Positions 31,857 to 63,444 of a DNA stretch of 64,000 nucleotides are shown one piece after another; position 1 is the stretch's first letter, and each line of letters starts with the position of its first letter. This DNA is from Actinomycetota bacterium (lineage in GTDB: Bacteria; Actinomycetota; Thermoleophilia; Solirubrobacterales; Solirubrobacteraceae). Under the pieces are notes generated by a model, which saw nothing but the letters and a program-made list of their open reading frames with translations, was not told the origin of the DNA and ran no database searches. The position numbers and the translations under genes were made by a program. The DNA is taken from positions 310,001 to 374,000 of the forward strand of contig JAFDWH010000021.1 of assembly GCA_018268595.1 (NCBI GenBank). Reading direction: 5' to 3'.

Positions 31857-32540
31857 TTACGCGGCGCCGTCGCGCTCGCGCGCCTGATCGACGGCCTTCT
31901 CGGCCGCTCTGTGCCCGACGTACGGCAGCAGCGCGCAGTAGAGCAGGTCGGGCAGCATCTCGACCAGCTCGTCGGCCGCGTTGCGCTGGAGCCGCGCGTA
32001 GATGATCTCGTAGAGGCCGCCGACCACCACTTCGCCCGCCAGCGCCGGCACGACCAGACCTCTCGGCGCCTCGGCGCGGCCCGGCTCGAGGAAGTCGACG
32101 AACACGCGCATCGCCGCGTCGCGGCGGCTGCGCGCCTCGGGGCCGGCGGCGACGACCTCGACGATGCACATGCGCGCGAAGGCCGGCTCGGCGGCGAGGT
32201 AGGCGAGGAACGTCTCGAGCCCGTCGTGCACCTTCTGGGGCCAGCCGTCGCCCTGCTCGTACGCCTGGCCGACGGCCGACAGCAGCTGCTCGACGACGGT
32301 GTCGTAGGCCGCCAGGAAGCACTCCTCCTTGTCGGCGAAGTGCTCGTAGAAGGTTCGGCGCGAGAGGCGCGCGCGCGCGATGATGTCGGCGACCGTCGTC
32401 GTCGCGAAGCCCTGCTCGGCGACCGCTTCGGCGACGGCGAGCAGCATCCGCTCGCGCTGGTTGTGCACGATGAAGCGGCGGGGGAGCCCGTGGCGTCCGC
32501 GCGGCAGGCGCTCCGGGACGCGATCTGCGGCGATCGGCAT
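31857..32540 (-). CDS. TetR-family transcriptional regulator
   Basis: A 227-residue TetR regulator. The N-terminal helix-turn-helix (ERMLLAVAEAVAEQGFATTTVADIIARARLSRRTFYEHFADKEECFLAAYD) is intact and the C-terminal ligand domain is family-like. It belongs to the same subtype as the two TetR genes at 39-40.5 kb (shared RTFYEHFADKEECF and VEVVAAGPEAR segments). ATG 32540 follows TATGGT by six bases; ATG 32570 is an upstream alternative. The target is unknown. Confidence 0.93.
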   Translation of the reverse strand: MPIAADRVPERLPRGRHGLPRRFIVHNQRERMLLAVAEAVAEQGFATTTVADIIARARLSRRTFYEHFADKEECFLAAYDTVVEQLLSAVGQAYEQGDGWPQKVHDGLETFLAYLAAEPAFARMCIVEVVAAGPEARSRRDAAMRVFVDFLEPGRAEAPRGLVVPALAGEVVVGGLYEIIYARLQRNAADELVEMLPDLLYCALLPYVGHRAAEKAVDQARERDGAA

Positions 32541-32570
32541 CGCGCGACCATAGACGCCCTCAGGAAACAT

Positions 32571-32694: not shown

Positions 32695-32724
32695 TTGACA
32701 ACAAAAGACGGTGCTGTTTATAGT
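32695..32724 (+). promoter_or_regulatory. Strong sigma-70-type promoter facing away from any plus-strand gene
   Basis: TTGACA (32695-32700), an 18-base A-rich spacer and TATAGT (32719-32724). This is the best canonical promoter in the window, set in unusually AT-rich sequence. The next plus-strand coding sequence is almost 1.9 kb away, so it most likely drives the structured RNA that follows. Confidence 0.65.
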
Positions 32725-32730
32725 CTTTGG

Positions 32731-32894
32731 GCGCGCGGGATCTTCACCGTCTCGCGTCTCTCGCACGAGTTTGGGCAATGTCGAAGCGTTCCCGGTCCGA
32801 GGCCCAGGCCCCGCCCGGGAACCGGTGCGAGGCTACGTGCCAGCCTTGCGCTCACGCGGCCGGGGCGTGCGGATGGGATCCGCCCCGGCCGCGT
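32731..32894 (+). ncRNA. Candidate structured small RNA, ~165 nt
   Basis: After the promoter, four consecutive hairpins fill the interval without a supported reading frame: A 32734-32740/32750-32756 (7 bp, one G-U); B 32788-32795/32815-32822 (GTTCCCGG/CCGGGAAC); C 32827-32834/32842-32849 (GCGAGGCT/AGCCTTGC, one G-U); D 32854-32867/32881-32894 (14 bp, GC-rich). Hairpin D could terminate transcription, though no T-run follows, and it could also serve the convergent CBS gene. The layout does not match 6S, SRP, tmRNA or RNase P RNA. The function is unknown and the RNA itself is a prediction. Confidence 0.5.
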
Positions 32895-32908
32895 CACCTT
32901 CTCCTGAC

Positions 32909-33307: not shown

Positions 33308-33543
33308 CTCTCCTCCTAAGTTGCGCCCCCGTGATGGCGGGTGAGGACGACCGACGGCGTGCTGCGACCGACGCGCGGGGCGTCCCCGGCCTCGCGCGCG
33401 TCACACCGTCGTCCTGCGAGCGATGCGGCTGACGCGTCCTCCTCGTCTGGGTGCCTGCGGATGGGTCAGATCAGCTTCCCAGCCTGGACGCTCGCGTTCA
33501 AGTGACAACCGTCGCATGGGTCGGTTCGCGACCCTCGACGGCG

Positions 33544-34482
33544 TCACTCCGGCTGCAGGCTCAACAGCGAGAGTTCGGAGATCGCCGGGCGCGACCCGTC
33601 CGGCGGGGCGCCGACGATCCACACCAGCACGTAGCGGTAGGCGCGGTCCGGCAGCTTCACCTTCGTCTCCGCGGCGACGCCGCTGCGGCTCGCGAGGTGG
33701 TCCCAGCCCGGATCGGTGATCGCGGCGGGCGGCCCTCTGGTGGCGGCGTAGATCTCGACGCTCATGCCGGGCGTCGGCGTCTTCAGCACGAGCTTGCGCA
33801 GCTTCTCCTTGCCCGCGAGGTCCACGTACATGCCCACCTGCGGCGGCGCGCTCGGGTCGCTCGCGGCGGGCGCCTTCCAGGCGGTGCGGACGGAGCCGTC
33901 GACCGCGCGGCTCGGGTCGCCGAGGTCGACGTTCGGCGGGGAGTACGGCGCGTACGCGACGGCCGCCGCGCCGAGCGCGACGTCGGTGATCGCGAACTGC
34001 GGCTTCGGCGGAGTCGTCTGCGTGGTCGTGGTCGTGTCGGGCTTGACCGAGCCGTCGCTCGTGTTGCCGGACGAGCCGCTGGTGCCGGGGCTCGACCCGC
34101 CGGTCGAGCCGTGGTGCGTGGTGGTGGCGCCGCCGTACTTGGAGCCGCCGCTGCTGGAACGGGGCGTGCTGGGCGCCGTGTACGCGGGCGTGTAGGGGGT
34201 CGGCTCCTGCGTCGCCGGCGGCAGGGTGGGGGTCGTCGCCGGCGCCGTCTGCGCGACCGTGGTCGCGGGCGGCGGCGGCTGCCTGTCGTCCTGCAGCAGC
34301 GTGTAGCCGCCGGCGGACGCGGCGCCGACGAGCACCGCGAGCGTCGTCACGACGCCGACCGCGGGGCGCAGGCCCGGGCGGCGCGGGCCGGGCAGCTCGT
34401 GCCCGCACTCGAGGCACCAGCGCTGGGGCGCCGCTGCGGGTGCGCTGCAGTTCGGGCAGGCGCGCGCGCGGGGGGACTCCAT
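33544..34482 (-). CDS. Zinc-ribbon membrane protein with discoidin-like C-terminal domain
   Basis: A 312-residue protein. The N-terminal zinc ribbon (CPNC...CLEC) is cytoplasmic, one membrane helix (VGVVTTLAVLVGAASAGGYTLL) follows, then a long Thr/Pro/Ser/Gly linker, and a C-terminal F5/8 discoidin-like beta domain (residues ~170-312, with AVDGSVRTAWKAP and a YRYVLVWIV strand). This resembles actinobacterial cell-surface carbohydrate-binding or cell-wall-sensing proteins. ATG 34482 follows TACCGT by seven bases, so the mRNA is probably leaderless. Confidence 0.75.
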   Translation of the reverse strand: MESPRARACPNCSAPAAAPQRWCLECGHELPGPRRPGLRPAVGVVTTLAVLVGAASAGGYTLLQDDRQPPPPATTVAQTAPATTPTLPPATQEPTPYTPAYTAPSTPRSSSGGSKYGGATTTHHGSTGGSSPGTSGSSGNTSDGSVKPDTTTTTQTTPPKPQFAITDVALGAAAVAYAPYSPPNVDLGDPSRAVDGSVRTAWKAPAASDPSAPPQVGMYVDLAGKEKLRKLVLKTPTPGMSVEIYAATRGPPAAITDPGWDHLASRSGVAAETKVKLPDRAYRYVLVWIVGAPPDGSRPAISELSLLSLQPE

Positions 34483-61105: not shown

Positions 61106-63444
61106 CGCGCGGGACCGCGACCGCCGTCGCCGGCGGCGGCCGCGGCGCGCTGGACGCCGCGGCCGACGAGCAGCGCCTGCCGGTCGACGCGATCGACCAC
61201 CCGGTCGCGCACCGGCCGATCCGCCGCGCCGGGCTGAGCGAGACCGAGCGCGAGCTGCTGAGCGACCTGTTCGCGATCGTCGAGGAGCACGCCGCCGAGA
61301 GCTCGGTCGAGATCGACCGCGAGCAGGTCGAGCAGGCGTTCGTCTACGCCTGCGAGCACCACGCCGACCAGCGGCGCAAGTCCGGCGAGGAGTTCATCAT
61401 CCACCCGGTCGGGGTGGCGAAGATCTGCGCCGGCATGCGGCTCGACACCGAGACGCTGTGCGCGGCGCTGCTGCACGACACGGTCGAGGACACGTCGGCC
61501 AGCCTGGAGGACGTCAGCGCGACGTTCGGCGAAGAGGTCGCGTCGCTCGTCGACGGCGTCACGAAGCTCACCGGCCTCACGTTCTCCTCGCGCGACGAGG
61601 CGCAGGCGGAGAACTACCGCAAGATGATGGTCGCGATGGCCTCGGACATCCGGGTCATCCTGATCAAGCTCGCCGACCGCCTGCACAACATGCGCACGAT
61701 CGGCGCGATGCCGAAGCAGAAGCAGATCGAGAAGGCGAAGGAGACGCTCGACATCTACGCCCCGATCGCGCACCGCCTCGGCATCCACGCGATCAAGTGG
61801 GAGCTGGAGGACCTCGCGTTCGCGGCGCTGCACCCGCGCAAGTACACCGAGATCAAGGGGCTCGTCAGTCAGCAGCGCGCCGAGCGCGAGCGCTACGTGA
61901 GCGAGGCGGGCGCCTACCTCGCGAGAGAGCTGGACGCGCTCGGGATCGAGGCGGAGATCTCCGGCCGCGCCAAGCACTTCTACTCGATCTACGCGAAGAT
62001 GACGAGAAAGGGGCGCGAGTTCAACGAGATCTACGACCTCACCGCGATGCGCGTGATCGTCGACTCGGTGAAGGACTGCTACGGCGCCGTCGGCGTCATC
62101 CACTCGCTCTGGAAGCCGCTCCCCGGCCGCTTCAAGGACTTCGTCGCGATGCCGAAGTTCAACATGTACCAGTCGCTGCACACGACGGTGATCGGGCCCG
62201 AGGGGCGTCCCCTGGAGATCCAGATCCGCACGCGCGAGATGCACGACATGGCCGAGTTCGGGATCGCCGCGCACTGGCTCTACAAGGGCGACAGAGCGGT
62301 CGACGACGACGGCAAGCTGCGCTGGCTCAAGCGGCTGCTTGACTGGCAGCAGGAGCTGAGCGACCCCAAGGAGTTCATGGACACCTTGAAGGTCGACCTG
62401 TTCGAGGACGAGGTGTTCGTCTTCACGCCGAAGGGCGAGGTCAAGTCGCTCCAGACGGGCGCCACGCCGCTCGACTTCGCCTACGAGGTCCACACCGACG
62501 TCGGCCACCGCTGCGTCGGCGCGAAGGTCAACGGCCGCATCGTGCCGCTCTCCTACGAGCTGAGAAGCGGCGACATCGTCGAGGTGCTGACGTCCAAGCG
62601 CGAGCGCGGCCCCTCGCGCGACTGGCTCGCGCTCGTGAAGACGACCCGCGCGCGCAACAAGATCCGTCAGTGGTTCAAGAGCGAGACGCGCAAGGACACC
62701 GAGCACGCCGGGCGCGAGCTGCTGCAGGACCACTTGAAGAAGCAGGGCCTGCCGGCGCAGCGGATCGTCGGCTCGCCGTTGCTGGCCGACGTGATCCGCG
62801 AGATGGGCTTCCGCAAGGGCGACGAGTTCTACATCGCGCTCGGCGGCGCGAAGATCTCGCCGACCGTCGTCGTCAACAAGGTGATGCAGCGGCTCAAGCA
62901 GGGCGAGGCGGCCGACGGCACGCCGACCGCGGCCGACGATCTGATGCAGACGCGTCCGCGCCCGGCGCGACTGCCGACCTCCTCGTCGAAGTTCGGGATC
63001 GTCGTGGACGGCGTCGGCGACGTGATGCTGCGGCTCGCGAAGTGCTGCCGCCCGGTGCCGGGCGACCCGATCGTCGGCTACGTCTCGCTCGGGCGCGGCA
63101 TCACGATCCACCGCGAGGACTGCCCCAACGTCGAGATCCTCAGAAAGGACCCGGACCGCTTCACGCCGGTCTCGTGGGACGGCGAGTCCTCGACCGCCTT
63201 CAAGGTCGAGCTGCACATCGACGGCTGGGACCGCCACCGCCTGCTCGAGGACCTCAGCCGCACGTTCAGCGAGGCCGGCATCAACATCGTCGAGGCGCGC
63301 TGCATGTCGAACCCGCCGATGATCAAGAACCGCTTCGTGATCGAAGTGGCCGACACGAAGACGCTCGACGCGACGATCAACCGCCTGCGCAACATCGAGT
63401 CCGTCTTCGACGCCTACCGCGTCACGCCGGGCGCGGGCGCGTAG
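61045..63444 (+). CDS. rel: Bifunctional (p)ppGpp synthetase/hydrolase Rel
   Basis: A 799-residue stringent-response enzyme. The HD hydrolase domain (HDTVEDT, H144-D145) is intact, as is the synthetase domain (EFNEIYDLTAMRVIV and YQSLHTTVIGPEG), then TGS (VFVFTPKGEVKSLQTGATPLDFAYEVHTDVGHRCVGAKVNGR), a zinc-finger region with KCCRPVPGD, and a C-terminal ACT domain. It controls growth on amino-acid starvation. ATG 61045 lies inside recJ, giving an unusually long 61-base overlap. No good later start exists before the HD domain. Confidence 0.97.
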   Translation: MADENGNTTHDDTTAPEPRLTRGTATAVAGGGRGALDAAADEQRLPVDAIDHPVAHRPIRRAGLSETERELLSDLFAIVEEHAAESSVEIDREQVEQAFVYACEHHADQRRKSGEEFIIHPVGVAKICAGMRLDTETLCAALLHDTVEDTSASLEDVSATFGEEVASLVDGVTKLTGLTFSSRDEAQAENYRKMMVAMASDIRVILIKLADRLHNMRTIGAMPKQKQIEKAKETLDIYAPIAHRLGIHAIKWELEDLAFAALHPRKYTEIKGLVSQQRAERERYVSEAGAYLARELDALGIEAEISGRAKHFYSIYAKMTRKGREFNEIYDLTAMRVIVDSVKDCYGAVGVIHSLWKPLPGRFKDFVAMPKFNMYQSLHTTVIGPEGRPLEIQIRTREMHDMAEFGIAAHWLYKGDRAVDDDGKLRWLKRLLDWQQELSDPKEFMDTLKVDLFEDEVFVFTPKGEVKSLQTGATPLDFAYEVHTDVGHRCVGAKVNGRIVPLSYELRSGDIVEVLTSKRERGPSRDWLALVKTTRARNKIRQWFKSETRKDTEHAGRELLQDHLKKQGLPAQRIVGSPLLADVIREMGFRKGDEFYIALGGAKISPTVVVNKVMQRLKQGEAADGTPTAADDLMQTRPRPARLPTSSSKFGIVVDGVGDVMLRLAKCCRPVPGDPIVGYVSLGRGITIHREDCPNVEILRKDPDRFTPVSWDGESSTAFKVELHIDGWDRHRLLEDLSRTFSEAGINIVEARCMSNPPMIKNRFVIEVADTKTLDATINRLRNIESVFDAYRVTPGAGA

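What the first reader, a model, noticed from the sequence alone, without database searches (positions are those of the whole stretch)
32695..32894. Candidate novel structured small RNA with a near-consensus promoter
The best sigma-70-like promoter in the window points into a 165-nt region with four consecutive hairpins and no gene. The arrangement fits a free-standing small RNA that does not match 6S, SRP, tmRNA or RNase P RNA. It could target mRNAs or proteins, or act antisense to the CBS gene.
Basis: partly seen in the sequence, partly recalled or inferred. Interest (0 to 1): 0.6.

Follow-up and report, generated by a model that had tools for sequence, protein, structure and literature searches.

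The report
Conexibacter small RNA beside CBS gene
A strong promoter drives a structured small RNA found only in the soil bacterium Conexibacter, and its most conserved loop is complementary to the start of the neighbouring gene's messenger RNA, so it is probably a previously undescribed small regulator of that gene.

Summary
TTGACA-18-TATAGT (32695-32724) is the best sigma-70-like site in the window, and the ~165-nt region after it folds into consecutive hairpins ending in a 14-bp GC hairpin. Promoter and 3' half occur once, at the same locus, in six of seven Conexibacter genomes (the seventh assembly breaks there) and were found nowhere else in family, order or sampled class. In hairpin 3, three of nine pairs change on both sides, and all pairs hold only on the + strand. 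No Rfam family matches; 6S is not found in the genome. A single-base indel in the 3' domain argues against a coding frame.

New here: the invariant terminal loop (GCGGAUGGGAU) is complementary over 10-14 nt to a conserved element in the 5' leader of the convergent CBS gene in six of seven leaders; the seventh has one internal mismatch. The 11-mer is very rare elsewhere. Best reading: a genus-specific regulatory RNA that acts on its neighbour's mRNA by loop-to-leader pairing. The structured RNA is well supported; the CBS target is likely but untested; the sign of regulation is unknown. One relative has a 1.1-kb gene between promoter and RNA.

The parts
32695..32724 (+). sigma-70-type promoter TTGACA-18-TATAGT, inside a longer conserved block TTGACAACA(A/G)AAGAC(G/C)G...GTTTATAGT
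   Evidence: 28-nt pattern found exactly once in each of six Conexibacter genomes and in none of the other genomes of the order searched (232 in all, up to 2 mismatches)
32731..32900 (+). inferred transcript of the small RNA (start inferred from the -10 position, end from the last hairpin)
   Evidence: inference from promoter and fold; no transcript data
32733..32757 (+). hairpin 1 of the window's version (5' domain is variable between species; congeners have a different, longer stem here)
32788..32822 (+). hairpin 2, GUUCCC...GGGAAC stem conserved, loop C-rich
32825..32851 (+). hairpin 3, covarying stem with loop ACGUGCC invariant in six species
   Evidence: strand preference
32854..32894 (+). 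hairpin 4, 14-bp invariant GC stem with invariant 13-nt loop UGCGGAUGGGAUC (32868-32880); probable terminator and probable pairing loop
33456..33465 (-). candidate target site in the leader of the CBS gene (CCCAUCCGCA on the mRNA), exact 10-nt complement of the hairpin-4 loop
32909..33307 (-). convergent gene: 132-aa protein with two CBS domains, the proposed target
   Evidence: PF00571, E 1.2e-15
33473..33501 (-). promoter-like TTGAAC-17-GAAGCT of the CBS gene, within conserved blocks of the leader alignment; would place the target site at or near the mRNA 5' end
   Evidence: conservation; promoter assignment is inference
31857..32570 (-). divergent TetR-family gene upstream, 76-79% identical orthologue at the same locus in congeners

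Best explanation
A Conexibacter-specific regulatory small RNA of about 165 nt (about 190-300 nt in most relatives) is made from a strong sigma-70-type promoter and ends at hairpin 4. Its invariant hairpin-4 loop (GCGGAUGGGAU) base-pairs with AUCCCAUCCGC at the 5' end of the leader of the convergent CBS-domain gene mRNA and changes that mRNA's stability or translation. Repression is my guess; the sign is not shown. Shown: the sequence elements, their conservation, covariation in hairpin 3, and the conserved complementarity. Inferred: transcription, termination at hairpin 4, pairing in the cell, and the effect on CBS expression.
For: Promoter and RNA body co-occur once, at the same TetR/CBS locus, in six Conexibacter genomes. 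Hairpin 3 has three pairs changed on both sides and 100% of cells paired on the + strand; on the reverse strand only 85% of hairpin-3 cells pair. The 5' domain of congeners also covaries. Loop-leader complement: 14 nt in G003, 12 in G006, 11 in G005, 10 in own, G001 and G002; 0-6 of 2000 shuffled leaders reach this. The exact 11-mer has only five other sites in the seven genomes, in non-recurrent contexts that look mostly coding. The leader element is one of a few conserved blocks of the leader.
Against: G004 keeps the loop but its leader reads CCGAUCCGC, one internal mismatch without compensation, and its longest exact complement (6 nt) is what shuffles give. In own and G004 a few control windows bind the loop as well or better (3 of 98 and 4 of 108). 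The hairpin-4 stem never varies, so it gives no covariation evidence. The site lies about 150 nt upstream of the start codon, not at the ribosome-binding site, and folding predicts it partly paired. No expression data exist here. In G001 the promoter is 1.28 kb from the loop.
Confidence: 0.5

Rival explanations
1. A conserved structured small RNA that acts elsewhere, on other mRNAs or by binding a protein, with the CBS leader match being incidental.
For: The hairpin-3 loop ACGUGCC is invariant and has no recurrent complement near genes; the G004 leader has a mismatch; G001 keeps the 3' domain intact although it is far from the promoter.
Against: The leader complement recurs at the same place in six of seven species and the 11-mer is very rare elsewhere.
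Confidence: 0.25
2. A DNA-binding protein recognises the same sequence in the CBS promoter region and in the RNA gene (GCGGAT-GGG-ATCCGC is an inverted repeat), so the shared sequence is an operator and not an RNA pairing site.
For: The loop sequence is an inverted repeat, and G003's leader has nearly the whole repeat.
Against: In the other leaders the left arm is not conserved while the central CCC is, the reverse of what a dyad operator should show.
Confidence: 0.1
3. The conserved element belongs to the CBS transcript: its 3' end or a bidirectional terminator shared by the two convergent genes, not a separate RNA.
For: It lies just past the CBS stop codon in all six, and the hairpin-4 stem is symmetrical; the 1.1-kb insertion in G001 separates it from the promoter but not from CBS.
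Against: Hairpin 3 pairs fully only on the + strand; the conserved promoter points at it and is conserved with it; a terminator alone does not explain invariant loops.
Confidence: 0.1
4. Ordinary intergenic sequence with chance hairpins in a 74% GC genome.
For: The window's own z-score is only -2.35.
Against: Genus-wide conservation and covariation, congener z-scores of -4.4 to -6.2.
Confidence: 0.03

Closest known systems
Base-pairing bacterial small RNAs that use an exposed hairpin loop (for example S. aureus RNAIII, plasmid antisense RNAs; own knowledge)
   Same: Stable stem with an invariant loop complementary to a 5' leader
   Different: No sequence relation; partner is the convergent neighbour gene; the pairing loop is that of the probable terminator hairpin
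Ms1 RNA of Actinobacteria (PMC4191392, PMC9130861)
   Same: Highly conserved actinobacterial RNA from a separate gene
   Different: Ms1 flanking genes in the paper are HAD hydrolase and oxidoreductase types, here TetR and CBS; Conexibacter and its class are not mentioned in that paper; the fold here is a row of hairpins
6S RNA (RF00013)
   Same: Size range and strong promoter
   Different: No match in the window or the whole genome; no single long rod with a central bubble in the predicted fold
Actinobacterial 6C RNA (own knowledge)
   Same: Congeners have a C-rich loop UCCCCC in hairpin 2
   Different: No Rfam match in the window or in five congeners; only one C-rich loop

Membership tests
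Regulatory base-pairing small RNA (general kind) | Own promoter and 3' end, non-coding | tested here: inconclusive
   Promoter and non-coding nature supported; the 3' end is inferred, with a weak U-tract
Regulatory base-pairing small RNA (general kind) | Conserved complementarity to a target mRNA | tested here: met
   Six of seven leaders, 10-14 nt; G004 has one mismatch
Regulatory base-pairing small RNA (general kind) | Transcribed and changes target expression | not testable with these tools
   Needs RNA-seq and genetics
6S RNA | Covariance-model match and long rod with central bubble | tested here: not met
Ms1 RNA | Conserved flanking genes (HAD hydrolase / oxidoreductase) | tested here: not met
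   Flanks are TetR and CBS genes against PMC9130861
Ms1 RNA | Binds core RNA polymerase | not testable with these tools
   Needs co-immunoprecipitation
SRP RNA, tmRNA, RNase P RNA, 6C and any other Rfam family | Rfam match | tested here: not met

The most novel reading that the evidence does not exclude
A genus-restricted RNA whose terminator-hairpin loop controls the mRNA of the gene encoded head-on against it, with a second contact between the C-rich hairpin-2 loop and the invariant G-run just upstream of the CBS ribosome-binding site: a two-contact regulator of a CBS-domain protein, made from a promoter it can share with an inserted gene in one species.
Probability: 0.15. Interest if true: 0.6.

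Novelty: new member of a known kind. Interest (0 to 1): 0.45.

Why it matters
Small RNAs appear almost unstudied in this actinobacterial lineage: the full-text searches for Conexibacter with small or noncoding RNA returned no paper whose title or abstract concerns such RNAs. This one comes with a named candidate target, exact contact bases and a natural mismatch (G004), so a reporter experiment could show directly whether it works.

Tried and rejected
Rfam search of the window and congeners, with permissive thresholds: only chance matches. 6S in the whole genome: none, although 5 of the 14 control genomes rang. Wider homologues: RNA model over 146 family genomes and 299 sampled class genomes, and promoter pattern over 232 order genomes, found only Conexibacter; the model is strict and its filters can lose diverged copies. 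The 19-mer loop scan of GTDB gave four Conexibacter records plus six unrelated genomes that match the 19-mer and little beyond it, which I take as chance. Complement of the hairpin-3 loop: no recurrent target seen (contexts not read). Small ORF: rejected, 1-nt indel in the most conserved part. CBS-strand element: disfavoured by G-U pairs. CBS promoter block as part of a wider regulon: only the CBS locus recurs with an exact match.

Full report
What was checked. The finding is a promoter at 32695-32724 and a structured gene-free stretch to 32894. The promoter is the best in the window by a clear margin, 11 of 12 against 9 of 12 for the next. The stretch folds as four main hairpins with a modest z-score of -2.35. 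That alone would not be convincing at 74% GC.

Conservation. A DNA search of 61 genomes found strong matches only in the same genus, named as Conexibacter by the records found in GTDB (the contig lengths equal those of G005, G006, G004 and G001). G003 is a single 6,359,369-base contig, which I take from memory to be C. woesei. Two blocks are conserved: the promoter, and the last 75 nt of the RNA. Each occurs once per genome, at the same locus, between a divergent TetR gene and a convergent CBS gene. The 75-nt alignment is 95% identical per column over six species, while the CBS proteins next door are only 67-71% identical. The seventh genome (77% complete) has the CBS leader at a contig end, so the RNA gene is unassembled rather than shown absent.

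Structure. In hairpin 3 three of nine pairs change on both sides and every cell is a standard pair; shuffles reach the covariation score once in 500. With six related sequences this is supportive, not overwhelming. Read on the opposite strand the same helix loses 15% of its pairs because G-U becomes C-A, so the functional molecule is most likely the + strand RNA. Four congeners (G003-G006) fold far better than shuffles, and the five congeners share a longer 5' stem with its own covarying pairs. That domain is largely missing from the window's shorter version. The hairpin-4 stem and loop do not vary at all.

Target. Reading the CBS leaders showed a conserved block that is the reverse complement of the invariant hairpin-4 loop. 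Exact complements of 10 to 14 nt occur in six of seven leaders; 0 to 6 of 2000 dinucleotide shuffles of the leader reach the observed length. The species are related, so this counts as one ancestral match that has been kept, not six independent ones. The complementarity was noticed while reading the leaders and then tested, so the shuffle counts are not a pre-planned test. The 11-mer ATCCCATCCGC otherwise occurs five times in the seven genomes, with no shared context. In G003 and G005 the only two copies in the genome are the RNA gene and the CBS leader. Conserved blocks TTGAAC-17-GAAGCT just upstream suggest that the site is at the very 5' end of the CBS mRNA; that promoter reading is inference. 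The weak points are the G004 mismatch and the partly paired leader fold.

Mechanism. The most economical reading is loop-to-leader pairing between the small RNA and the CBS mRNA. A possible second contact is the C-rich loop of hairpin 2 with the invariant G-run before the ribosome-binding site. Such runs are easy to match by chance in this genome and I do not rely on it. Whether the pairing represses or activates is not known.

An odd relative. In G001, a metagenome-assembled genome, 1.1 kb with an apparent secreted-protein gene of no Pfam family lies between the conserved promoter and the conserved RNA. There the RNA could be released from the 3' part of a longer transcript or made from another promoter. 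The 3' domain is fully conserved all the same, which suggests that it is the functional part.

Relation to known families. No Rfam family matches, 6S is not found in the whole genome, and the Ms1 gene neighbourhood differs. It is filed as a new small RNA family of a known kind.

Noticed in passing
L002 1592-2774 (G001, minus strand): A gene with a signal-peptide-like start and no Pfam match is inserted between the conserved promoter and the RNA body; a GC-rich terminator-like hairpin follows its stop codon.
   Followed up: partly
L052-L056, immediately upstream of the promoter: Five congeners carry a second TetR-family gene (46-49% identical to the window's TetR) divergent from the RNA promoter; the window's genome lacks it there, so a regulator of the promoter may have been lost.
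   Followed up: partly
window 33308-33547, minus strand: The CBS leader is about 240 nt with several conserved blocks (CGACGGTTG, GGGAAGCTG, GAGGAGG, GGGGGCGCAA), suggesting a structured or regulated leader of its own.
   Followed up: partly
window 61135-61227: ARAGORN calls a 93-nt tRNA-Ala(CGC) that Rfam's tRNA model does not support; probably a false call.
   Followed up: no
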